Under the pieces are notes generated by a model. It made no database searches and was not told where the DNA came from. It saw only the letters and a program-made list of their open reading frames with translations. From assembly GCF_002155965.1 (NCBI RefSeq), contig NZ_MUMH01000173.1, forward strand, positions 1-33,950: 33,950 nucleotides of DNA, written 5' to 3'. Positions 17,328-25,919 of this stretch are shown piece after piece. This DNA comes from Allokutzneria sp. NRRL B-24872. Lineage in GTDB: Bacteria > Actinomycetota > Actinomycetes > Mycobacteriales > Pseudonocardiaceae. A program made the translations under genes and the position numbers. Positions within the stretch are counted from its first letter, which is position 1; each line of letters starts with the position of its first letter.

Positions 17328-17789
17328 TCACAGGTGCTTCAGCTTGGTGCACCTGGGGTCCTTGCCGGCGGTGTTGAAGATGAACTCGACGAAGATGCCC
17401 GGGTGCTGGGTCCTCGTCGCGTCGATCTCGCGGCTGAGCGAGTGCCACTTGTTGTCCGCCAGGGCTTTGTCGCCGCTCTTGGCCAACAGGTAGCTCACCT
17501 CGGGGTCGTGCGGATCGGGGCGGTAGTGCACGAAGACGTCATTGCGCTCCGTCCGCCCACCACCCGGCTTCTTGATCTTGTACTGCACCTTGGTGATCAG
17601 CGCCAGTGGTGCGGTGCCACCGAATCCGTCGGGGCCTGACTTGCCGTAGACGGCGACGGAACCGGTGAAACCCGCCTTGCTGCAACTGGCGGTGAGCTTC
17701 GGCTTCTCCGCCGCCTCCGCCGCGATCCCGGAGACGACAGTGCCCAAGCCCGTGACCGCGACGACCGCGATCGCTCGACGAAGATCCAT
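17328..17789 (-). CDS. Secreted protein of unknown function
   Basis: A 153-residue protein with a signal peptide (MDLRRAIAVVAVTGLGTVVS, then cleavage near AEAAE). The mature part has two cysteines (in TASCSKAG and DPRCTKL) that may form a disulfide joining N- and C-terminus, and a beta-rich core with VQYKIKKPGGG and AKSGDKALADNKWHSL. I recall similar KWHSL-containing small secreted proteins in streptomycetes without known function. ATG 17789 was chosen for the signal peptide; the frame runs 12 codons further upstream. It lies tail to tail with the lyase gene, 15 bases apart. Confidence 0.7.
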   Translation of the reverse strand: MDLRRAIAVVAVTGLGTVVSGIAAEAAEKPKLTASCSKAGFTGSVAVYGKSGPDGFGGTAPLALITKVQYKIKKPGGGRTERNDVFVHYRPDPHDPEVSYLLAKSGDKALADNKWHSLSREIDATRTQHPGIFVEFIFNTAGKDPRCTKLKHL

Positions 17790-17868
17790 CCGCCGAGACT
17801 CGCACGTGCGGTCGTTGAGCCGCAAAAAGGTCCGGGCTGGGCCGAAGCAACCACGTGCGTGGGGTTCG

Positions 17869-18324
17869 CTAGCCCTTGACGTGCTTGCGCAGCGACTCCA
17901 GCGCTTGGTCGGCGTGGGCCTCGAAGCGGAGCTCGCTCTTGATCACGTCGAGCAGGACGCGGTCGGTGCCGATGACGAAGGTGTGGCGCTTCACCATCTT
18001 GATGATCCTGCGCTTCACCCCGAACTGGGCCGACACGGTTCCGTCCACATCGGACAGAAGGGGGTAGTCGAAGGTGTTCTGCGACGCGAACTCCTTCTGC
18101 TTGCTCACCGCGTCACCGCTGATGCCGACGCGCTGCGCGCCCAGCTCGGCGAACTCGGCGCCGAGGTCGCGGAAGTGGCAGGCCTCCGCGGTGCAACCAC
18201 CGGTCATGGCGGCGGGGTAGAAGAACAGCACGACAGGGCCGTCGGTGAGCAGCTTGCTCAACGTGCGGGGCTCGCCGTCCTGGTCGGGGAGTGTGAAGTC
18301 TGCGATGGTGTCACCGGGGCGCAT
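17869..18324 (-). CDS. bcp: Peroxiredoxin, BCP/PrxQ type
   Basis: A 151-residue thiol peroxidase that reduces hydrogen peroxide and lipid hydroperoxides with thioredoxin. The active site PAAMTGGCTAEACHFRD has peroxidatic Cys44 within TxxC and the resolving Cys49 five residues later, as in the PrxQ/BCP subfamily; the usual KD-T-P is changed to AAMTG. VGISGDAVSKQKEFA and PLLSDVDGTVSAQFGV are further family blocks. The ATG at 18324 lies two bases after the DUF1295 stop, so it is the last gene of an operon CFA - DUF1295 - peroxiredoxin. This suggests protection of, or response to damage in, unsaturated lipids. Confidence 0.9.
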   Translation of the reverse strand: MRPGDTIADFTLPDQDGEPRTLSKLLTDGPVVLFFYPAAMTGGCTAEACHFRDLGAEFAELGAQRVGISGDAVSKQKEFASQNTFDYPLLSDVDGTVSAQFGVKRRIIKMVKRHTFVIGTDRVLLDVIKSELRFEAHADQALESLRKHVKG

Positions 18325-18326
18325 TG

Positions 18327-19067
18327 TCAGCCTTTCTTGGGTGGCAGCGGGAAGAAACCGCTGGTGCGGGAGACGTACTCGGCGTATCCGGGGCGCTCGC
18401 GCATGGCCCTCTCGGTCAGCGGGGCACCGCTTCCCTTGGCCAGCAACAGGATCATCGCCACCGGCGACAACACGGTCGCGGCGCCGATCCAGTGCTCGCA
18501 GGCCATGAGGTAGAGGCCGGCCCACACGCACGCGTCGCCGAAGTAGTTGGGGTGCCTGGTGTAGCGCCACAAACCCGTGTTGAGCACCGGCGGGCGGTCG
18601 GGGGTGGCCTTGTAGCGGGCGAGCTGGTGGTCGCCAACGGTCTCGAAGACGAAGCCGAGCAGCCACACCGCCGCGCCGAGCCATCCCAGCCAGCCGACCT
18701 CCGGGACCCAGTACTGCGCCGCCTGCACGGGCAGCGACACGAACCACATGATCACCGCTTGGAGCATGTACACGCGGTAGAACGGGTTGCCCTTGATCTT
18801 GGTGTAGCGGGGGTCCTCGCCGCGACCGTGGTTGCGGGAGTGGATGTGCCACGCGAGCCGGACGCCCCACACGACGGTCAGCGCGGCGCTGAGCAGGTGA
18901 CCGCCGCCGGAGAGCGCGTAGCTCGTCACGGCGATCACGGCGAAGCCCAAGCCCCAGAGCGTGTCGATGGTGTCGAGGCGCCCTCGGCGGCGCGCGATCA
19001 CGTAGGTGATCACGAAGAGCACGATGGAGAGGGCGCCGGTGATCGCGAGGTTGCCGGTGAAGCTCAC
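18327..19067 (-). CDS. DUF1295 membrane protein (steroid 5-alpha-reductase-like)
   Basis: A 246-residue protein with six to seven membrane segments, of the DUF1295 family (steroid 5-alpha reductase / isoprenylcysteine methyltransferase superfamily). LDTIDTLWGLGFAV and TVVWGVRLAWHIHSRN are typical N-terminal blocks, and NTGLWRYTRHPNYFGDACVW is the conserved C-terminal cofactor-binding motif (LWRYTRHPNYFG). Members are thought to reduce or modify lipid double bonds using NADPH; direct evidence is scarce. Start GTG 19067 overlaps nothing; the CFA gene stop lies two bases upstream. The M. tuberculosis counterpart is Rv0446c, next to ufaA1. Confidence 0.9.
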   Translation of the reverse strand: MSFTGNLAITGALSIVLFVITYVIARRRGRLDTIDTLWGLGFAVIAVTSYALSGGGHLLSAALTVVWGVRLAWHIHSRNHGRGEDPRYTKIKGNPFYRVYMLQAVIMWFVSLPVQAAQYWVPEVGWLGWLGAAVWLLGFVFETVGDHQLARYKATPDRPPVLNTGLWRYTRHPNYFGDACVWAGLYLMACEHWIGAATVLSPVAMILLLAKGSGAPLTERAMRERPGYAEYVSRTSGFFPLPPKKG

Positions 19068-19068
19068 C

Positions 19069-20283
19069 TCAGATCACCGCCGGGCGCATCGCCAGGATCT
19101 GGTTGACGCCCATGCGGTTCTCGGCGAACGCCAGCGATCCGCCCGCCATGTACAGCCGCCACACGCGCGCCTGCCCTTCGCCGACGAGCCGCACGAGCTC
19201 GGCCCAGCGCTTCTCGATGGTCTCAGCCCACACGTCCACGGTCCGAACGTAGTGCTCGCGCATCGCCTCGACACCACGGACCTCGAAACCGGCGCGCTCG
19301 ATGAGGTTCACGGTGCTGCCGACGGGGCTCATGGTCATGTCGGGTGCCACGTAGCCCTCGATGAACGCGCCGCCGCCGGGAGCGACCTTGCCGCGCGACA
19401 TCTGCTGGATCAGCACACGACCACCGGGCTTGACCGCGCGGTGCAGCGCCGAGGTGTAGATCGGGTAGTTCCCGGCGCCGACGTGCTCGCCCATCTCGAT
19501 CGACGACACCGCGTCGTAGGGGCCGTCGGACAGTTCGCGGTAGTCCTGCAAGCGCACGGTGACCTTGTCGGTGAGGTCGCGCTCCTTGATCCGGTTCTCG
19601 ATGAAGTCGCGCTGCTGCGCGGAAAGCGTGATGCCGGTCGCGTGCACGCCGTAGTGCTCGGCCGCGTGCAGGATCATCGAGCCCCAGCCGCACCCGACGT
19701 CCAGCAGGTGCATCCCGGGCTTCAGTTCCAGCTTGCGGCAGACGAGGTCGAGCTTGTCCCGCTGTGCGTCCGTGAGGGTGTAGTCGGGATCGTCGCTGGT
19801 CCAGTAGCCCGACGAGTACGCCATGTGCGGGTCGAGGACCTTCTCGTAGAACTCGTTGCTGAGGTCGTAGTGGTGGGCGATGGCCGCCCGGTCCCGCAGC
19901 CGCGTGTGCAGCCGCCCGCGCAGCCTGGCCTCCTCCGGCGGCGCCTTCGGGCGAGGGCCGATCACGCCGAGCCGCAGAGCAGCCTTGACCAGGTCCACGC
20001 GGTCGGCGGCCGTCACCTTCGGCCGCTGCTTCCTGGCGAGCGCCCAGAACCGGCGAAGGCCCTCGGCGAGGTCACCGTCGACGTCAAGATCTCCAGAGAC
20101 GTAGGCCCTGGCGAGGCCCAGCTCGTTCGGGTCCCACAGCAGCCTGCGCAGCGCCCTGCGGTTGCGGACCACCGCGACCGGGCCGTCGGAGGGCCCCGCG
20201 GTGCTGCCGTCCCAGGCCCGCACCCCCACCGGCAGACCGGCTCCGAGCACCCGTTCGACCAGCTCAGCCAATGTCTGAGCCAC
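19069..20283 (-). CDS. CFA-synthase-family methyltransferase A
   Basis: A SAM-dependent methyltransferase acting on unsaturated phospholipid acyl chains. The N-terminal domain is followed by IAHHYDLSNEFYEKVL, the SAM motif LDVGCGWGS (194-202), GITLSAQQ and IEMGEHVG with Glu266. It has 404 residues from GTG 20283; GTG 20301 adds six. Compared with E. coli Cfa from memory, the bicarbonate-site Cys139 position (YSCAYW) reads YSSGYW and the His266 position (LHTI) reads IQQM, while the Glu and the Tyr (EHYVRTV) remain. It heads an operon with DUF1295 and peroxiredoxin and is divergent from the FAD/DUF1365/CFA-B set. The product could be cyclopropane, methyl-branched or other modified acyl chains. 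Confidence 0.9.
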   Translation of the reverse strand: MAQTLAELVERVLGAGLPVGVRAWDGSTAGPSDGPVAVVRNRRALRRLLWDPNELGLARAYVSGDLDVDGDLAEGLRRFWALARKQRPKVTAADRVDLVKAALRLGVIGPRPKAPPEEARLRGRLHTRLRDRAAIAHHYDLSNEFYEKVLDPHMAYSSGYWTSDDPDYTLTDAQRDKLDLVCRKLELKPGMHLLDVGCGWGSMILHAAEHYGVHATGITLSAQQRDFIENRIKERDLTDKVTVRLQDYRELSDGPYDAVSSIEMGEHVGAGNYPIYTSALHRAVKPGGRVLIQQMSRGKVAPGGGAFIEGYVAPDMTMSPVGSTVNLIERAGFEVRGVEAMREHYVRTVDVWAETIEKRWAELVRLVGEGQARVWRLYMAGGSLAFAENRMGVNQILAMRPAVI

Positions 20284-20403
20284 ACCATGCTGCTGGGACA
20301 CGCCGCACACCCCGCTTCCGAAGCTTTCCCGGTCTTCGTCGCGCGCGGGCGCCCGGATTGGTGGATCACCCGAAAGACCAAACCGGAGCGCCGACTGCCC
20401 CGA
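20284..20403. promoter_or_regulatory. Divergent promoter region between the two lipid-enzyme operons
   Basis: About 120 bases separate the starts of the CFA-A gene and the alpha/beta hydrolase gene. An imperfect palindrome around AAGCTT (about 20332-20341) is visible. No clear -35/-10 pair or ECF-sigma promoter could be assigned by eye. Confidence 0.4.
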
Positions 20404-21051
20404 ATGACCGATGTGCGCACACCCGACGTGACGATCATGGAAGCCGGTGCGGAGGTTGAGGCCGTTGTCATCGTTCTGCACGGCGGCAAGGTCCGCAGCA
20501 GGGAGCCGGTGCTGCGGCGCAACCTCAGCTACCGGCGGATGGTCCCGATCGCCCGGTCGCTGCACCGTGCGGGGCGGGAGCACGGCGTCTCCGTCTGGCT
20601 GGTCCGCTTCCGCGAGCGCGGCTGGAACGAGCCGGAGCTGCCCGCCGTCGCCGACGCGCGGTGGGCGATCGCCGAGGCCCGCCGCAACCACCCCGGCGCG
20701 GCGATCGTGCTGGTCGGGCACTCGATGGGCGGCAGGACGGCGTTGCGCGTGGCCGACGAGAGCGGAGTGCGGGCGGTCTGCGCGCTCGCGCCGTGGATCG
20801 AGCCCGGCGAGCCCGTCGGCCACCTCGTCCGGTCCGGGCGCGAGGTGCTGATCGTGCACGGCACCGCCGACCGGTGGACGAGCCCGGCGCAGTCCGCGAG
20901 CTACGTCGAGCGGCTGCGCTCCCTGGGGGTCGCGGCCGAGCACGTCGCGCTGCCGGGCACCGGGCACTTCATGCTCCGGCGGATCGCCGACTGGACCGAC
21001 GCCGCCCGCACGTTCGTCATGAAGATCACGGAGGAGAAGCGCGATGCGTGA
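20404..21051 (+). CDS. Alpha/beta hydrolase (serine type)
   Basis: A 215-residue compact alpha/beta hydrolase. VIVLHGGKV holds the oxyanion turn, GHSMGG the nucleophile Ser107, HGTADRWTSP the acid and GTGHFML the catalytic His. There is no lid insertion and no signal peptide, so it is a cytosolic esterase or thioesterase of the dienelactone-hydrolase-like size class. It is the first gene of the plus-strand operon, and the FAD-enzyme gene starts inside its last codons (8-base overlap), so a role in releasing or handling acyl groups in the same pathway is plausible but inferred. Confidence 0.85.
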   Translation: MTDVRTPDVTIMEAGAEVEAVVIVLHGGKVRSREPVLRRNLSYRRMVPIARSLHRAGREHGVSVWLVRFRERGWNEPELPAVADARWAIAEARRNHPGAAIVLVGHSMGGRTALRVADESGVRAVCALAPWIEPGEPVGHLVRSGREVLIVHGTADRWTSPAQSASYVERLRSLGVAAEHVALPGTGHFMLRRIADWTDAARTFVMKITEEKRDA

Positions 21052-22306
21052 CCGTGTTGCCGTCATCGGCAGTGGAGTTGCTGGACTCACCGCGGCCTAC
21101 CTGTTGCAGCGGCGCTACGACGTGGTGATGTTCGAGCGGGACGAGCGCGTTGGCGGCCACGCGCACACCCATGACGTGCCCGCGCCCGATGGCGGGATGG
21201 TCGCCGTGGACAGCGGTTTCATCGTGCACAACCAGCGCACCTACCCGAACCTGCTGCGGCTCTTCGGGGAACTCGGGGTGTCCACGCAGGACTCCGAGAT
21301 GTCGATGAGCGTGCGCTGCGAGGGCTGTGGCCTGGAGTACGCGGGCGCCAAGCAGATCGGCGGGCTGTTCGCGCAGCCGAGGAACCTCGTCAAGCCCGCG
21401 TACCTGCGGATGCTGGCCGAGGTCACCCGCTTCCACAAGCACGCCCGCCGCGTCCTGGCCGAGCCGGACGCCGGAGACGTCACGCTCGGCGCGTTCCTGG
21501 CGATCGGCGGCTACTCCTCCTACTTCGTCGACCACTTCGTGCTGCCGGTGGTCTCCGCCGTGTGGTCGTCCTCGCGCGAGGTCAGCAAGCAGTACCCCGC
21601 GCGCTACCTCTTCGAGTTCCTCCGCAACCACGGCATGCTCGCCGTCGGCGGTTCTCCGCAGTGGAAGACGGTCACCGGTGGTTCTCGGTCCTATGTGGAA
21701 CGCGCTGTCAAGGGGCTCACCGCCGTGCACGTCTCCACGCCGATCCGTGCCGTGCACCGCGACGCCGACGGCGTGGACATCCGTGACGACGCCGACGAGC
21801 TGCACCGCGTCGACCGCGTGGTGATCGCCACCCACCCCGACCAGGCGCTGCGGTTGCTGGGCGACGCGACCGAGGAGGAGAGCGCCGTGCTGGGCGCCTT
21901 CCAGTACTCCCGCAACGAGACCTGGCTGCACAAGGACGCTTCGCTGCTGCCGCGCGCCGAGGGTGCGCGGGCGTCGTGGAACTACCTCAAGCCGTCGTGC
22001 CGGTCGGACTCCAACGAGGTCGTCGTCAGCTACCACATGAACCGGCTCATGCGCCTGTCCGAGCCGGAGGACTACGTCGTCACGCTCAACGCCCCCACCC
22101 GGATCGCGAAGGAGTCGGTGATCGCGAAGATGGTGTACGAGCACCCGATCTACACGCCGGAGTCCGTTGCCGCGCAAGCGAAACTCCCCGGGCTCGCGAC
22201 CGGCAGGACGGCGTTCGCCGGTGCCTACCACGGGTGGGGCTTCCACGAGGACGGCTGCGCGTCCGGGGTGCGGGCGGCGGAGGCGTTCGGAGCGGGTTGG
22301 ACATGA
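21044..22306 (+). CDS. FAD-dependent amine-oxidase-like oxidoreductase
   Basis: A 420-residue flavoprotein with an N-terminal dinucleotide fold (VAVIGSGVAGLTAAYLL, then FERDERVGGHAHT, the Glu and GG of the amine-oxidase FAD motif). DSGFIVHNQRTYPNLLRLF, WSSSREVSKQYPARYLFEFL and GGSRSYVERAV are typical of the subgroup linked to CFA genes, including Rv0449c. The C-terminal GTAYHGW-like segment FAGAYHGWGFHEDG completes the FAD site. Not an amine oxidase in function as far as is known; members are suspected to oxidise or desaturate modified acyl chains, like the flavoenzyme partners of furan or methyl-branched fatty acid synthesis. Coupled by ATGA to DUF1365. Confidence 0.9.
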   Translation: MRDRVAVIGSGVAGLTAAYLLQRRYDVVMFERDERVGGHAHTHDVPAPDGGMVAVDSGFIVHNQRTYPNLLRLFGELGVSTQDSEMSMSVRCEGCGLEYAGAKQIGGLFAQPRNLVKPAYLRMLAEVTRFHKHARRVLAEPDAGDVTLGAFLAIGGYSSYFVDHFVLPVVSAVWSSSREVSKQYPARYLFEFLRNHGMLAVGGSPQWKTVTGGSRSYVERAVKGLTAVHVSTPIRAVHRDADGVDIRDDADELHRVDRVVIATHPDQALRLLGDATEEESAVLGAFQYSRNETWLHKDASLLPRAEGARASWNYLKPSCRSDSNEVVVSYHMNRLMRLSEPEDYVVTLNAPTRIAKESVIAKMVYEHPIYTPESVAAQAKLPGLATGRTAFAGAYHGWGFHEDGCASGVRAAEAFGAGWT

Positions 22307-22968
22307 TCTACGACGCCGTCGTCACGCACACGCGCCTCGACCAGATCCGGCGGCGGTTCTCCCACCGCGTCCAGATGTCGCTGGTCGACCTCGCCGCGCT
22401 GCCCAAGGGGTTCGAGGCGCGCGACCACCTCGGCGACCCGGAGCGGTCGATCCGCGCGAACCTCGACGCCTGGCTCGCCTCGCAGGGCGTCGACCTCCGG
22501 GGTGGGCGCGTGCTGTTGCTGGCAAACCCGCGCTCGTTCGGCTTCGTCTTCAACCCGCTGTCGGTGTTCTGGTGCCACGGCCCCGACGGTGAGCTGGAGT
22601 GCATCGTCGCCGAGGTCCACAACACCTACGGCGAACGGCACTGCTACCTGCTCCGCCCCGACCCGGCCGGCCGCGCGGTGGCGGACAAGGAGTTCTACGT
22701 CTCGCCGTTCTTCACCGTCGAGGGCCGCTACCACATGAAGTTCAGCAGGCCGGGCGAGCGGCTGGACATCAGCATCTCGTTGCGGCAGAACGACGAGGTC
22801 GTGTTCGTCGCGACGCTGCGCGGGCAGCGGATGTCCACCCGCAAGCGCCTGCTCGCCCTGTCCCACCGCGTGTTCGCCCTGATCTTCCGGCACGGGATCG
22901 CCCTGTGGCTCAGGCGAATCCCGGTCGTTCCCCGCAAGCCGCACACCGTTCAGGAGGGTGTCCAGTGA
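22303..22968 (+). CDS. DUF1365 family protein
   Basis: A 221-residue DUF1365 protein. Conserved blocks are VTHTRLDQIRRRFSHRVQMS at the start, RVLLLANPRSFGFVFNPLSV, EVHNTYGERHCYLL and KEFYVSPFFTVEGRYHMKF. The family is nearly always next to the FAD enzyme and a CFA synthase, in actinobacteria (Rv0448c) and in proteobacterial singlet-oxygen or light-response loci. The biochemical role is unknown; a lipid-binding or accessory role is a guess. It overlaps both neighbours by four bases (ATGA, GTGA). Confidence 0.93.
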   Translation: MIYDAVVTHTRLDQIRRRFSHRVQMSLVDLAALPKGFEARDHLGDPERSIRANLDAWLASQGVDLRGGRVLLLANPRSFGFVFNPLSVFWCHGPDGELECIVAEVHNTYGERHCYLLRPDPAGRAVADKEFYVSPFFTVEGRYHMKFSRPGERLDISISLRQNDEVVFVATLRGQRMSTRKRLLALSHRVFALIFRHGIALWLRRIPVVPRKPHTVQEGVQ

Positions 22969-24125
22969 CCGTGCTCCGAGCCAGGATCGCCGAAAGTCTG
23001 TTCAGGAACGCCGTCCGGGCGTTGCCGGTCCGCGTCACGCTCCCCGGCGGCACGCGCTGGGGTGCCGGTGGCTCGAACTCGCCGATCATGCGGATCGTGC
23101 GGCCCGAGGAGTTCTTCCGCAAGCTCGGCGCCGACGCCAAGATCGGCTTCGGCGAGTCCTACATGGCCGGGGACTGGACCAGCGGCCACCTCGCCGACGT
23201 GCTCACCCCGTTCGCGCGGCGGATGGCCACGCTGATCCCCAAGCCGTTGCAGGTCTTCCGGCACATCGTCGAACGGCGCCAGCCCACCGAGGAGCGCAAC
23301 ACCGTCGACGGCGCGCGGAACAACATCCACCGCCACTACGACCTGTCCAACGACCTCTTCGCGAACTTCCTCGACGAGACGATGACCTACTCGGCGGCCT
23401 GGTTCGCGCCCGGCGTCACCGACCTCGCCGAGGCCCAGCGCCGCAAGATCGACGGCATCCTGGACTACGCGGGGGTGCGCGCGGGGAGCAGGGTGCTGGA
23501 GATCGGCACCGGCTGGGGCGAGCTGGCGATCCGCGCGGCCCGCCGGGGAGCGCACATCACGTCGATCACCATCTCCGCCGAACAGAAAGCCTTGGCGGAC
23601 AAGCGGATCGTCGAGGCCGGGGTCTCGCACCTGGCCAAGGTGGAACTGAAGGACTACCGCGACGCCACCGGGGCCTACGACGCGATCGTCTCGGTGGAGA
23701 TGATCGAGGCGGTCGGCCGCGAGTACTGGCCGACGTACTTCGGCGCGCTGGACCGGCTGCTCGTGCCCGGCGGGCGGGTCGGGCTCCAGGCGATCACCAT
23801 GCCGCACGACCGGTTGCTGGCCACGAGCGAGTCCTACACCTGGATTCACAAGTACGTCTTCCCGGGCGGACAGCTCCTGTCCGTGCCCGCGATCGAGAGC
23901 CACAGCCACCTCCCGCTCGTCGCGCGCCGCTCGCTCGGCCAGGACTACGCGCGCACGCTGCGGCACTGGCACCAGCGCTTCACCGCCAACTGGGACACCA
24001 TCGCCGAGTTCGGCTTCGACGCCCAGTTCAAGCGGATGTGGGAGTTCTACCTCGGCTACTGCGAGGCCGGGTTCCGCTCCGGCTACCTCGACGTGTGGCA
24101 GCTCGGATTCGAGAAGGCCCGATGA
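22965..24125 (+). CDS. CFA-synthase-family methyltransferase B (UfaA1-like)
   Basis: A 386-residue methyltransferase. IHRHYDLSNDLFANFLDE, the SAM motif LEIGTGWGE (178-186; Thr where most have Cys), ITISAEQ, VEMIEAVG with Glu248, WIHKYVFPGGQL and GFRSGYLDVWQLGF follow E. coli Cfa closely. From memory of that enzyme, the Cys139 position (YSCAYW) is YSAAWF and the His266 position (LHTI) is LQAI, while Glu248 and the Tyr of DYARTL are kept. The start GTG overlaps the DUF1365 stop, and the stop overlaps the SDR gene. Its context matches Rv0447c (ufaA1), a candidate methyltransferase for cyclopropane or 10-methyl fatty acids. Confidence 0.92.
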   Translation: MTVLRARIAESLFRNAVRALPVRVTLPGGTRWGAGGSNSPIMRIVRPEEFFRKLGADAKIGFGESYMAGDWTSGHLADVLTPFARRMATLIPKPLQVFRHIVERRQPTEERNTVDGARNNIHRHYDLSNDLFANFLDETMTYSAAWFAPGVTDLAEAQRRKIDGILDYAGVRAGSRVLEIGTGWGELAIRAARRGAHITSITISAEQKALADKRIVEAGVSHLAKVELKDYRDATGAYDAIVSVEMIEAVGREYWPTYFGALDRLLVPGGRVGLQAITMPHDRLLATSESYTWIHKYVFPGGQLLSVPAIESHSHLPLVARRSLGQDYARTLRHWHQRFTANWDTIAEFGFDAQFKRMWEFYLGYCEAGFRSGYLDVWQLGFEKAR

Positions 24126-24853
24126 GCCCGCGCGTCTGGATCACCGGTGCCTCCAGCGGGATCGGCGCCGCGCTCGCCCAGGAGCTGCACGCGCGCGGCG
24201 CCCGGGTCGCGATCAGCGCCCGCCGCACCGACCAGCTGGCCAAGGTCTCCGACGGCCGGATGCTCGTCCAGCCCGTCGACGTGATGGACCGCATCGCCGT
24301 GCTCACCGCCGCGGAGAAGGTCATCGACGCGTTCGGCGGCATCGACATCGCCGTGCTCAACGCGGGTGCTTGGGACCGCTTCGACGTGACGAACTGGGAC
24401 CCGGACTCGTTCCGGAGGCAGTTCGAGGTCAACGTGTTCGGGATGTCCTACGGCATCGAGGCCGTGCTGCCGTCGATGCTGGAGCGCGGCAAGGGCACGA
24501 TCGTCGGTGTCGCCTCGGTCGCGGGCTATCGCGGCATGCCGGGCGGGGAGGCCTACAGCGCGACCAAGGCCGCGCAGATCAACCTGCTGGAGTCGTTGCG
24601 AGGAGGCTTGCGGCACAAGGGAATCCGCGTGCAGACCATCTGCCCGGGTTTCGTGCGGACCCCGATGACCGCGCGCAACACCTTCCGGATGCCGTTCATG
24701 GTCGAGCCCGACCACGCCGCTCGCAAGATCGCCGACGGCATCGTCTCCGGCAAGCCGGAGATCGTCTTCCCCCGGCGGATGGCGGTGCTGATGAAGGCGG
24801 CACGCCTGGTACCAGTCGGCATGTGGTCCCAGCTCACCGGTCGCCGCCGCTGA
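24122..24853 (+). CDS. Short-chain dehydrogenase/reductase
   Basis: A 243-residue classical SDR using NAD(P). WITGASSGIGAAL is the cofactor motif, LNAGA the stabilising NAG, VASVAGYRG holds the catalytic Ser, YSATKAA the Tyr and Lys, and ICPGFVRTPMT the PG motif. The Arg residues near position 37 (ISARR) favour NADPH. It is the last gene of the plus-strand lipid operon, with an ATGA overlap, so its substrate is likely a keto, hydroxy or aldehyde lipid intermediate. A hydrophobic C-terminal segment may touch the membrane. Confidence 0.92.
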   Translation: MSPRVWITGASSGIGAALAQELHARGARVAISARRTDQLAKVSDGRMLVQPVDVMDRIAVLTAAEKVIDAFGGIDIAVLNAGAWDRFDVTNWDPDSFRRQFEVNVFGMSYGIEAVLPSMLERGKGTIVGVASVAGYRGMPGGEAYSATKAAQINLLESLRGGLRHKGIRVQTICPGFVRTPMTARNTFRMPFMVEPDHAARKIADGIVSGKPEIVFPRRMAVLMKAARLVPVGMWSQLTGRRR

Positions 24854-24879
24854 TTCGTTCGCGCCGCACCGGGTAGCCA
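24851..24879 (+). promoter_or_regulatory. Promoter of DUF72 gene, probably leaderless
   Basis: TGATTC (24851-24856) and TAGCCA (24874-24879) have a 17-base spacer, and the -10 box ends six bases before ATG 24886. There is no Shine-Dalgarno sequence, so transcription probably starts at or next to the ATG. Confidence 0.5.
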
Positions 24880-24885
24880 GAAGCC

Positions 24886-25758
24886 ATGGGCGAGGTGCTG
24901 GTGGGAACGGCGGGGTGGACCGACCGAGGGCTGACCGAGACCGGCTGGTACCCGGCGGGAGTGCGCGACGCGGAGCGGCTGACCAGCTACGCGTCGCGCT
25001 TCCCGCTGGTGGAGGTCAACACCTCCTACTACGCCATCCCCACACCCGAGGTCGCGCAGGGCTGGGTGGACCGCACCCCGGAGGACTTCACCTTCAACGT
25101 CAAGGCTTTCGCCGCGTTGACCAAGCACACCGTGCGCTCCTCCCACCTGCCGCCAGACCTGCGCACCGGCACCGATCGCGTCCGCCTCAGCGACCTCACC
25201 CCGGCGCGCGCCGAGGAGTTGTGGTCGCGGTTTCTCCTTGCCGTGGAACCGATCCACGCCGCGGGGAAGCTCGGGCTGCTGCTGTTCCAGTTCCCGCCGT
25301 GGTTCCGGCCGGGGGAGTCCGCGCGGCAGTTCCTGGTGGAGTGCAGGAGCCGTTGCGCGCCGATGCGGATCTGCGTCGAGCTGCGTCACTCCACGTGGCT
25401 GGACCACGTCAACGGCCCCAGCACGCTCGCTTTCCTGTGCCAGCACGACATTCCGTACGTGTCGGTGGACATGCCCCAGGGCCACGACGACTCCGTGCCG
25501 CCGCTGCTCGTGGCGACCTCCGACATAGCCGTGCTCCGCATGCACGGTCACAGTCCACAGTGGACGAGCAAGGACATCGAGAAACGGTTCCGCTACTCCT
25601 ACTCCGAGGCTGAGCTGGCCGCGTGGGCCCGGCGCCTGCACGAGCTCGACGAGCCCGCGCACGTGGTCTTCAACAACTGCTACCGCGACGAGGGTCATCT
25701 CAACGCGCAGTTCTTGCAGGGGCTGCTGAACAATTCTTCTATTCACAGTCTTGAGTGA
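24886..25758 (+). CDS. DUF72 (YecE-like) TIM-barrel protein
   Basis: A 290-residue DUF72 protein. VLVGTAGWTDRGL is the GTSGW-type start, FPLVEVNTSYYAIPTPEVAQ the VE-NSTFY block, TFNVKAFAALT the FxFxVK block, GLLLFQFPPWF the QxPP block, and ICVELRHSTWL the VE-RH-SW block. Most signature residues are intact. The family fold is known, but the reaction is not. It is not coupled to the lipid operon (32-base gap with its own promoter). No partner Fe-S protein (often found next to yecE-type genes) is visible. Confidence 0.92.
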   Translation: MGEVLVGTAGWTDRGLTETGWYPAGVRDAERLTSYASRFPLVEVNTSYYAIPTPEVAQGWVDRTPEDFTFNVKAFAALTKHTVRSSHLPPDLRTGTDRVRLSDLTPARAEELWSRFLLAVEPIHAAGKLGLLLFQFPPWFRPGESARQFLVECRSRCAPMRICVELRHSTWLDHVNGPSTLAFLCQHDIPYVSVDMPQGHDDSVPPLLVATSDIAVLRMHGHSPQWTSKDIEKRFRYSYSEAELAAWARRLHELDEPAHVVFNNCYRDEGHLNAQFLQGLLNNSSIHSLE

Positions 25759-25815
25759 AGGTGAGCAGTTCTCGGCTGTGATCCTGCGTGATCGAACCGC
25801 TACCCCGAATGCTCT

Positions 25816-25834
25816 GGCCTGCGCATTTCAGGCC
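25816..25834. terminator. Hairpin after DUF72 gene
   Basis: GGCCTG (25816-25821) pairs with CAGGCC (25829-25834) around a 7-base loop, about 60 bases after the DUF72 stop. No T-run follows directly; it is a weak terminator candidate. Confidence 0.3.
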
Positions 25835-25847
25835 TGCTTGAAGGGGA

Positions 25848-25877
25848 TTGTTCACTATTTTTTTCGCTGCCTACGGT
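25848..25877 (+). promoter_or_regulatory. Promoter of secreted-protein operon
   Basis: TTGTTC (25848-25853) and TACGGT (25872-25877) are 18 bases apart, with a run of seven Ts in the spacer, unusually AT-rich for this genome. The first gene starts 42 bases downstream. Confidence 0.5.
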
Positions 25878-25919
25878 CCTCTCGATTTCGGGTACGACCG
25901 AACTGAAAGGCAGAAAACG

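What the first reader, a model, noticed from the sequence alone, without database searches (positions are those of the whole stretch)
17869..24853. Two-operon lipid-modification cluster with two CFA-type methyltransferases
Seen: a minus-strand operon (CFA-A, DUF1295, peroxiredoxin) and a plus-strand operon (alpha/beta hydrolase, FAD enzyme, DUF1365, CFA-B, SDR) diverge from one 120-base region, nearly all genes coupled by short overlaps. Known: FAD enzyme, DUF1365, CFA and DUF1295 recur together (M. tuberculosis Rv0449c-Rv0446c next to sigK; proteobacterial singlet-oxygen loci). Inference: the added second CFA, peroxiredoxin, hydrolase and SDR suggest a full pathway that methylates, oxidises and possibly remodels membrane acyl chains, for example to methyl-branched, cyclopropyl or furan-like fatty acids, perhaps under photo-oxidative stress.
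Basis: partly seen in the sequence, partly recalled or inferred. Interest (0 to 1): 0.75.

Follow-up and report, generated by a model that had tools for sequence, protein, structure and literature searches.

The report
Likely furan fatty-acid gene cluster
A bacterium carries a back-to-back gene cluster that probably turns ordinary membrane fats into methylated furan fats, which may protect membranes from light-made reactive oxygen; it appears to use an uncharacterised second methylating enzyme where the known bacterial pathway uses a different one.

Summary
The eight genes exist as described. They are best read as an actinobacterial furan fatty acid (FuFA) locus. The FAD enzyme, DUF1365 and CFA-B match UfaD, UfaO and UfaM, whose functions were shown in Rhodobacter and Rhodopseudomonas (PMC7380195): same order, 36-41% identity to Rhodopseudomonas copies, CFA-B in the UfaM clade with its active-site signature. 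CFA-B occurs in 51 of 51 UfaD-positive genomes among 100 sampled. The second methyltransferase, CFA-A, is by sequence neither FufM, BfaB nor a cyclopropane synthase. It forms its own clade; a His-to-Gln plus Ile-to-Met change in the bicarbonate site marks it when beside ufa genes or DUF1295 (28 of 28) and almost never otherwise (1 of 32). It sits beside DUF1295, as FufM does in Rhodopseudomonas (3 of 3). I infer, untested, that it replaces FufM and adds a second methyl. Two SigK-type promoter sites lie back to back between the operons; the genome has SigK/RskA.

The parts
17869..18324 (-). PrxQ/BCP-type peroxiredoxin; CxxxxC motif visible in the translation
   Evidence: Pfam AhpC-TSA 7e-33; present in 12 of 51 family loci; follows CFA-A/DUF1295 elsewhere too (L235, L244, L246; L269)
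18327..19067 (-). DUF1295 membrane protein (weakly 5-alpha-reductase/ICMT-like), role unknown
   Evidence: Pfam 3e-62; directly next to CFA-A in 29 of 51 family loci and next to FufM in 3 of 3 Rhodopseudomonas genomes
19069..20301 (-). CFA-A: second SAM methyltransferase, own clade, active-site signature S-E-H-Q-M-Y; proposed FufM replacement
   Evidence: start codon unsure (GTG 20301; alternatives 20310, 20283, 20271)
20334..20361 (-). SigK-type promoter candidate for CFA-A: CCAATC-N16-ACGAAG
   Evidence: in same-genus L041 the -35 is identical and the -10 reads ACGAAC
20378..20405 (+). SigK-type promoter candidate for the plus-strand operon: CCAAAC-N16-CCGAAT
   Evidence: both hexamers identical in L041 while the spacer differs
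20404..21051 (+). alpha/beta hydrolase (true start probably 20428 or 20437)
   Evidence: Pfam; directly upstream of ufaD in 34 of 51 family loci; travels with CFA-B in three genomes where CFA-B is apart from ufaD (L240, L241, L243)
21044..22306 (+). UfaD homologue (FAD fatty-acyl desaturase)
   Evidence: Pfam PF01593; 36-38% identical to Rhodopseudomonas UfaD
22303..22968 (+). UfaO homologue (DUF1365, O2-dependent furan-forming enzyme)
   Evidence: Pfam PF07103 4e-59; 36-39% identical to Rhodopseudomonas UfaO
22965..24125 (+). CFA-B = UfaM homologue (fatty-acyl methyltransferase), signature A-E-A-Q-I-Y
   Evidence: 41% to Rhodopseudomonas UfaM; one clade with UfaM, support 100/98
24122..24853 (+). 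SDR, overlaps CFA-B but not a conserved part
   Evidence: Pfam; not found next to CFA-B in same-genus G034; 1 of 51 other loci

Best explanation
The two divergent operons make methylated furan fatty acids on membrane phospholipids. Inferred from characterised homologues: CFA-B (UfaM) methylates a cis double bond and leaves an allylic methyl-alkene rather than a cyclopropane; the FAD enzyme (UfaD) desaturates it to a methyl-diene; DUF1365 (UfaO) puts in one oxygen from O2 and closes the furan. Inferred here, and the least sure step (about 0.4 on its own): CFA-A then adds a second methyl to the furan, doing FufM's job with an enzyme of another clade, with DUF1295 as its unexplained companion; peroxiredoxin may clear lipid peroxides and the hydrolase may remodel acyl chains. 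Both operons are probably switched on together by a SigK/RskA-type sigma/anti-sigma pair from back-to-back promoters, likely under photo-oxidative or redox stress.
For: UfaM, UfaD and UfaO functions, intermediates and the FufM step are shown in PMC7380195 (abstract, passages and one section seen). Rhodopseudomonas genomes (same genus as the tested strain, not the strain itself) have ufaD-ufaO-ufaM in the window's order (3 of 3 fetched), and window proteins match them at 36-41%. CFA-B clusters with these and with beta/alpha-proteobacterial UfaM, 100/98, sharing S/A-E-A-Q-I-Y. Co-occurrence in 100 family genomes: CFA-B in 51 of 51 UfaD-positive and 3 of 49 negative; CFA-A in 43 of 51 and 1 of 49 (lists typed; four 50-54% hits in UfaD-negative genomes and the partial hit of G098 were counted as absent, the partial hit of G005 as present; three of the four were checked and fall outside the CFA-A clade; genomes are related, so the Fisher p-values overstate). 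In 394 class genomes, 97 have UfaD and 52 of these have a CFA-A-type hit within 10 kb; 20 of those 52 were fetched and all 20 read ufaD-ufaO-CFA-B-CFA-A on one strand, DUF1295 next in 19. Gln plus Met signature: 28 of 28 CFA-A-type proteins beside ufa genes, CFA-B or DUF1295, against 1 of 32 with none of these in the 4-6 kb fetched. No FufM in the family: best hits about 100 bits over part of the query, against 295 bits for the Rhodopseudomonas protein; the four best, all fetched, fit other CMAS relatives better. No FufM hit at 1e-35 in 394 class genomes. FufM overlaps or abuts DUF1295 in Rhodopseudomonas, and FufM-clade genes abut DUF1295 in Caballeronia, Burkholderia, Cupriavidus and Rhizobium plasmids. 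Promoter sites. SigK/RskA in the own genome; sigma and RskA clusters beside the locus in 19 and 20 of 51 family loci (one member of each tested by Pfam).
Against: No product, activity or expression was measured. CFA-A is phylogenetically closest to BfaB-like enzymes, not FufM, and has a different signature from FufM (C/S-E-H-H-F-Y). DUF1295 also follows UfaM where no CFA-A is seen (Streptomyces L101), so the pairing is not unique to a second methylase. The empty FufM search in the class had no positive control, as the tool itself warns. 8 of 51 UfaD-positive genomes lack an intact CFA-A. The promoter motif is missing from most hydrolase-first (27 of 35) and CFA-A (27 of 34) upstream stretches of the family, and from 9 of 20 class loci; the -10 of the window's CFA-A site differs at 2 of 6 positions; both search patterns were drawn up after the window's sites had been seen. 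In R. sphaeroides three further genes of the ufa operon are not needed for FuFA, so neighbours need not be pathway enzymes.
Confidence: 0.66

Rival explanations
1. The ufaDOM part makes a monomethyl furan, but CFA-A is a second UfaM-like enzyme for another acyl chain or position (for example oleate versus cis-vaccenate), not a furan methylase.
For: CFA-A independently lost the bicarbonate-site His, as UfaM did, which would suit chain rather than methyl deprotonation (inference); it is much closer to CFA synthases than to the FufM-like coclaurine methyltransferases (183 against 57 bits).
Against: Its position beside DUF1295 is FufM's position in Rhodopseudomonas, and it is found almost only where UfaD is (43 of 44 family genomes), while CFA-B is always there too, as expected for a later step.
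Confidence: 0.35
2. CFA-A plus DUF1295 is a reductive methylation pair making 10-methyl (tuberculostearic-type) fatty acids, replacing BfaAB in this genus.
For: CFA-A is nearest to the BfaB-like clade; DUF1295 has weak similarity to 5-alpha-reductases; no BfaB-type hit was found in the window genome at 1e-60.
Against: BfaB and 30 of 31 of the unlinked class relatives without the Gln/Met pair keep the His that CFA-A lost; many family genomes hold both CFA-A and a BfaB-type paralog; CFA-A follows UfaD in distribution.
Confidence: 0.1
3. The locus makes cyclopropane fatty acids, as the Pfam family name suggests.
For: Both proteins hit the CMAS Pfam family.
Against: His266, a bicarbonate ligand together with Glu239 and Tyr317 (PMC11387697 passages), is Gln in both proteins; passages of PMC9821293 call the bicarbonate-binding residues essential for ring formation. 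A Halomonas UfaM gave 11-methyloctadec-12-enoate in E. coli (PMC12089945 passages).
Confidence: 0.04

Closest known systems
ufaM/ufaD/ufaO furan fatty acid pathway of Rhodobacter sphaeroides and Rhodopseudomonas palustris (PMC7380195)
   Same: Homologous methylase, FAD desaturase and DUF1365 oxygenase; same ufaD-ufaO-ufaM order as in Rhodopseudomonas; DUF1295 beside a second methylase; related loci in Azospirillum and Rhizobium lie next to an ECF sigma/ChrR pair
   Different: Second methylase is CFA-A, not FufM; a hydrolase and a peroxiredoxin are added; SigK/RskA-type control is proposed in place of RpoE/ChrR
Mycobacterium tuberculosis Rv0449c-Rv0446c-sigK-rskA operon
   Different: In the window's genome sigK/rskA is on another contig, and there is a second methylase, a hydrolase and a divergent layout
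BfaAB 10-methyl fatty acid synthesis (PMC5660069, PMC7791843; passages seen)
   Same: CFA-family methylase; CFA-A is 40% identical to a Tsukamurella BfaB-type protein
   Different: No FAD_binding_4 reductase partner here; bicarbonate His lost
FufM (RPA0924)
   Same: Proposed reaction and DUF1295 neighbour
   Different: Different clade, different active-site signature

Membership tests
ufaMDO furan fatty acid pathway | UfaM-clade methyltransferase | tested here: met
   CFA-B in UfaM clade 100/98 with the same S/A-E-A-Q-I-Y signature
ufaMDO furan fatty acid pathway | UfaD FAD desaturase and UfaO DUF1365 next to each other | tested here: met
   Pfam; 36-39% to Rhodopseudomonas copies, same order
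ufaMDO furan fatty acid pathway | Makes methyl-alkene, methyl-diene and furan FAMEs | not testable with these tools
   needs GC-MS
FufM furan methylase | Belongs to the FufM (coclaurine-methyltransferase-like) clade | tested here: not met
   CFA-A lies outside, branch 100/100; 29% over 238 residues to the Caballeronia FufM type
FufM furan methylase | Gene next to DUF1295 (a context trait, seen in Rhodopseudomonas) | tested here: met
   window; 29 of 51 family loci; Rhodopseudomonas 3 of 3
FufM furan methylase | Converts monomethyl to dimethyl furan | not testable with these tools
   needs expression in a FuFA-making host
BfaAB (10-methyl fatty acids) | FAD_binding_4 reductase next to the methylase | tested here: not met
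   no such gene among the eight; three reference pairs do have it
Cyclopropane fatty acid synthase | Glu/His/Tyr bicarbonate ligands | tested here: not met
   His266 is Gln in both CFA-A and CFA-B
SigK regulon | SigK/RskA in the genome | tested here: met
   RskA_C in 1 place; adjacent ECF sigma, best PDB match SigK 7e-45, next RpoE 3e-20
SigK regulon | CCAWNC-N16-CCGAAT-type promoter | tested here: met
   plus-strand site exact, minus-strand site with 2 changes in the -10; the M. tuberculosis consensus is recalled, its paper was not held
SigK regulon | Transcription depends on SigK | not testable with these tools
   needs a mutant or run-off transcription

The most novel reading that the evidence does not exclude
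Actinobacteria make dimethyl furan fatty acids with a new methyltransferase class. CFA-A arose among BfaB-like enzymes, lost the bicarbonate site in parallel with UfaM, and displaced FufM beside DUF1295. The whole set is a core output of SigK/RskA, so furan fatty acids would be an unrecognised product of the SigK regulon, the tubercle bacillus operon included, and SigK would be the actinobacterial counterpart of the RpoE/ChrR singlet-oxygen switch.
Probability: 0.38. Interest if true: 0.8.

Novelty: new variant of a known kind. Interest (0 to 1): 0.6.

Why it matters
The stimuli of SigK/RskA are called obscure in a passage I saw (PMC9861118), which also reports light-induced expression of two M. 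kansasii antigens with putative SigK sites. A furan fatty acid output would make that question testable by simple FAME analysis. It would extend FuFA synthesis, shown in the work seen here for two alpha-proteobacteria, to a large part of the class (UfaD in 97 of 394 genomes), and give CFA-A, which Pfam files under mycolic acid cyclopropane synthetase, a different predicted activity. The two independent His-to-Gln changes offer a rule, still to be tested, for telling ring-forming from ring-free members of this family.

Tried and rejected
Rejected: cyclopropane product (bicarbonate His lost in both enzymes). CFA-A as a FufM orthologue. CFA-A as BfaB. SDR and peroxiredoxin as core parts. Sigma-70 promoters (0 found in 17700-25900). 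The third strong CMAS gene of the genome (C20) as BfaB: it is a UfaM-clade paralog, 73% identical to CFA-B, beside a zinc-type dehydrogenase. DUF1295 against solved structures gave nothing usable. The tRNA scan found none in the window. A paper search with LitR, light and cyclopropane words led to nothing that I used.

Not done: structure prediction and fold search, because relatives fetched through genome searches are not among the inputs the tool lists and a single-sequence model seemed not worth a job. R. palustris CGA009 and R. sphaeroides sequences themselves were not obtained; same-genus Rhodopseudomonas genomes stood in.

Weak points of my own tests: shuffles were single-letter shuffles; the patterns were shaped after seeing the sites; gene starts from my own ORF caller are rough; the 20 linked class loci were picked by me from 52, and the 40 unlinked hits from the rest; neighbours of unlinked hits were looked for only in the 4-6 kb fetched.
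Full report
What is there. The window is contig C83 of an 8.19-Mb genome in 475 contigs, 70% GC. Plus-strand junctions overlap by 4-8 bases; minus-strand genes are separated by 1-2 bases. Downstream is a DUF72 gene (24886-25758).

Conservation. UfaD-type FAD proteins occur in 51 of 100 family genomes, the window's included, two of them cut by a contig end or broken. I fetched stretches around 51 further loci in 50 genomes and mapped the window's proteins on them: DUF1365 adjacent in 50, CFA-B adjacent in 42, hydrolase upstream in 34, CFA-A present in 33 (divergent 22, convergent 4, same strand 7), DUF1295 in 32 (directly beside CFA-A in 29), peroxiredoxin 12, SDR 1, an ECF sigma cluster 19 and an RskA-type anti-sigma cluster 20 (clusters; one member of each tested by Pfam). 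Where the set is split, it splits in a regular way in the cases fetched: CFA-A stays with DUF1295 (L235, L244-L247) and often peroxiredoxin, and the hydrolase stays with CFA-B (L240, L241, L243), though not in L242. Genome-wide, CFA-B is in 51 of 51 UfaD-positive genomes and 3 of 49 others; CFA-A in 43 of 51 and 1 of 49.

Beyond the family. In 394 genomes of the class, 97 have UfaD and 52 of these have a CFA-A-type hit within 10 kb. I fetched 20 of the 52: all 20 read ufaD-ufaO-CFA-B-CFA-A on one strand, and DUF1295 follows in 19. A Rhodococcus plasmid shows hydrolase-ufaD-ufaO-CFA-B, then an unannotated CFA-A match in two pieces, then DUF1295. Tsukamurella has ufaD-ufaO-methylase-lipocalin-sigK-anti-sigma, and a Streptomyces plasmid has ufaD-ufaO-methylase-DUF1295-hydrolase next to a MerR regulator with B12-binding domains, the LitR/CarH build (the LitR label is recalled).

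What the ufa genes do. PMC7380195 (abstract, passages, one section) shows in R. sphaeroides and R. palustris that UfaM methylates phospholipid-bound cis-vaccenate, UfaD (FAD protein) desaturates the product to a methyl-diene, UfaO (DUF1365) makes the furan with oxygen from O2, and FufM adds a second methyl in R. palustris. In three Rhodopseudomonas genomes, identified by record titles and searched, ufaD-ufaO-ufaM stand in that order, and a FufM-type gene overlaps or abuts a DUF1295 gene. The R. palustris paper lists deletions of RPA0923 and of RPA0923 plus fufM among its strains; that RPA0923 is the DUF1295 gene is my inference, and I saw no result for it.

Two methyltransferases, two classes. 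A maximum-likelihood tree of 56 proteins puts CFA-B with Rhodopseudomonas, Azospirillum, Caballeronia, Burkholderia and Cupriavidus UfaM (100/98), FufM types in a separate clade (100/100), and CFA-A in a clade of its own (100/100) beside BfaB and other actinobacterial CFA proteins. At E. coli positions 139, 239, 240, 266, 268 and 317, cyclopropane synthases and BfaB read C-E-H-H-I-Y, FufM types C/S-E-H-H-F-Y, UfaM and CFA-B S/A-E-A-Q-I-Y (a few have C or G first), and CFA-A C/S-E-H-Q-M-Y. Glu239, His266 and Tyr317 hold the bicarbonate that takes the proton in ring closure (passages of PMC11387697). In 60 further class proteins of the CFA-A kind: 20 of 20 beside ufa genes carry Q and M; of 20 hits apart from ufaD in UfaD-positive genomes, 9 carry Q and M (7 beside DUF1295, 1 beside CFA-B, 1 with neither) and 11 are C-E-H-H-I-Y with neither neighbour; of 20 hits in UfaD-negative genomes, 19 are C-E-H-H-I-Y and 1 is C-E-H-Q-I-Y. 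So Q plus M is in 28 of 28 with such a neighbour and 1 of 32 without. G087, a UfaD-negative family genome, has C-E-H-Q-A-Y. The His-to-Gln change thus arose separately in UfaM and in CFA-A, and tracks the furan locus.

CFA-A as FufM's stand-in. In the proteobacterial plasmids read, the DUF1295 neighbour is a FufM-clade gene; the Caballeronia one scores 263 bits to coclaurine N-methyltransferase 6gkv and 95 to E. coli CFA synthase. A plant paper reports FufM as 38% identical to an Arabidopsis methyltransferase (PMC10940516 passages); that this one is coclaurine-like is recalled. FufM was not found in 100 family genomes: the best hits reach about 100 bits, and the four best are other CMAS relatives. 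Nor was it at 1e-35 in 394 class genomes (no positive control). CFA-A sits where FufM sits and is nearly confined to UfaD genomes, much as PMC7380195 says that FufM is found in a subset of ufa organisms. This is an argument from position and distribution, not a shown activity.

Control. The 102-135-base divergent region holds CCAAAC-N16-CCGAAT at 20378-20405 (+) and CCAATC-N16-ACGAAG at 20334-20361 (-). With a pattern drawn up to cover both, they are the only two matches in the window at up to one mismatch, against 0.15 expected. A pattern taken from the family sites, the window's own included (CCAAWC-N15-17-CCGAAT), has 3 matches in the genome (reversed control 1), one of them here. In same-genus L041 the plus-strand hexamers are identical and the minus-strand site has the same -35 and ACGAAC as -10, while spacer bases differ. 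A looser form, CCANNN-N15-17-CCGAAN, is upstream of 12 of 17 ufaD-first, 8 of 35 hydrolase-first and 7 of 34 CFA-A genes in the family (window included; single-letter shuffles 0.4, 0.8, 0.5) and of 11 of 20 class loci (shuffles 0.4). So the motif is enriched, but most hydrolase-first and CFA-A stretches lack it. The genome's only RskA_C match lies beside an ECF sigma whose best solved match is SigK and next best an RpoE (that the latter is the R. sphaeroides protein is recalled), next to molybdopterin-oxidoreductase and fasciclin genes, and 69% identical to the sigma beside a ufa locus in a relative. In M. tuberculosis sigK is autoregulated through the Rv0449c promoter (PMC7509140 passage). 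Azospirillum and Rhizobium loci carry ChrR-type anti-sigma genes.

Print. In the held open-access library, searches showed me no paper that joins furan fatty acids with SigK, ufaA1 or actinobacterial ufa operons. One search found 8 papers with at least two of its terms, none with 'furan'. Searches listed only 15 each of thousands, and a review with all three terms (PMC6222795) was not opened. Lemke et al. state in general that homologues occur across bacteria. PMC9323897 (passages) reports a furan fatty acid from an Agrococcus strain but no UfaO-like enzyme there. Most subscription papers are not in that library.

Verdict. Real, conserved, and a variant of a known pathway. Furan fatty acid synthesis under SigK-type control is the best reading (0.66). 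The second methylation by CFA-A is the new and testable part (about 0.4).

Noticed in passing
genome contig C20:1855-3009 (L097:1846-3078, -): A second UfaM-clade gene, 73% identical to CFA-B, next to an ABC-transporter-like operon (my reading of the translations); same neighbourhood in both other genomes of the genus examined, G034 and G068, and G068 has no full UfaD hit.
   Followed up: partly
genome contig C2 (L118:6079-9793): sigK/rskA pair divergent from a molybdopterin oxidoreductase and a fasciclin-domain protein, resembling the MPT70/83 setting of mycobacterial SigK (that parallel is recalled; domains).
   Followed up: partly
L106:8965-19027 (Cupriavidus plasmid): One locus with ufaD, ufaO, a FufM-clade gene, DUF1295, a UfaM-clade gene, a lipocalin and a cryptochrome/photolyase: a compact proteobacterial light-stress version.
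   Followed up: partly
G043 and G076 (L236, L237): CFA-B (UfaM) orthologues in family genomes without any full UfaD hit; the product would stop at the methyl-alkene.
   Followed up: no
L083, L084, L085 with L242 (genus g42): CFA-B lies far from ufaD-ufaO and, in the one case read (L242), next to an SDR-like gene, while CFA-A stays with ufaD.
   Followed up: no
L288 (G122): A UfaD-negative genome whose CFA-A-like protein has the His-to-Gln change but not Ile-to-Met, a possible intermediate or relic.
   Followed up: no
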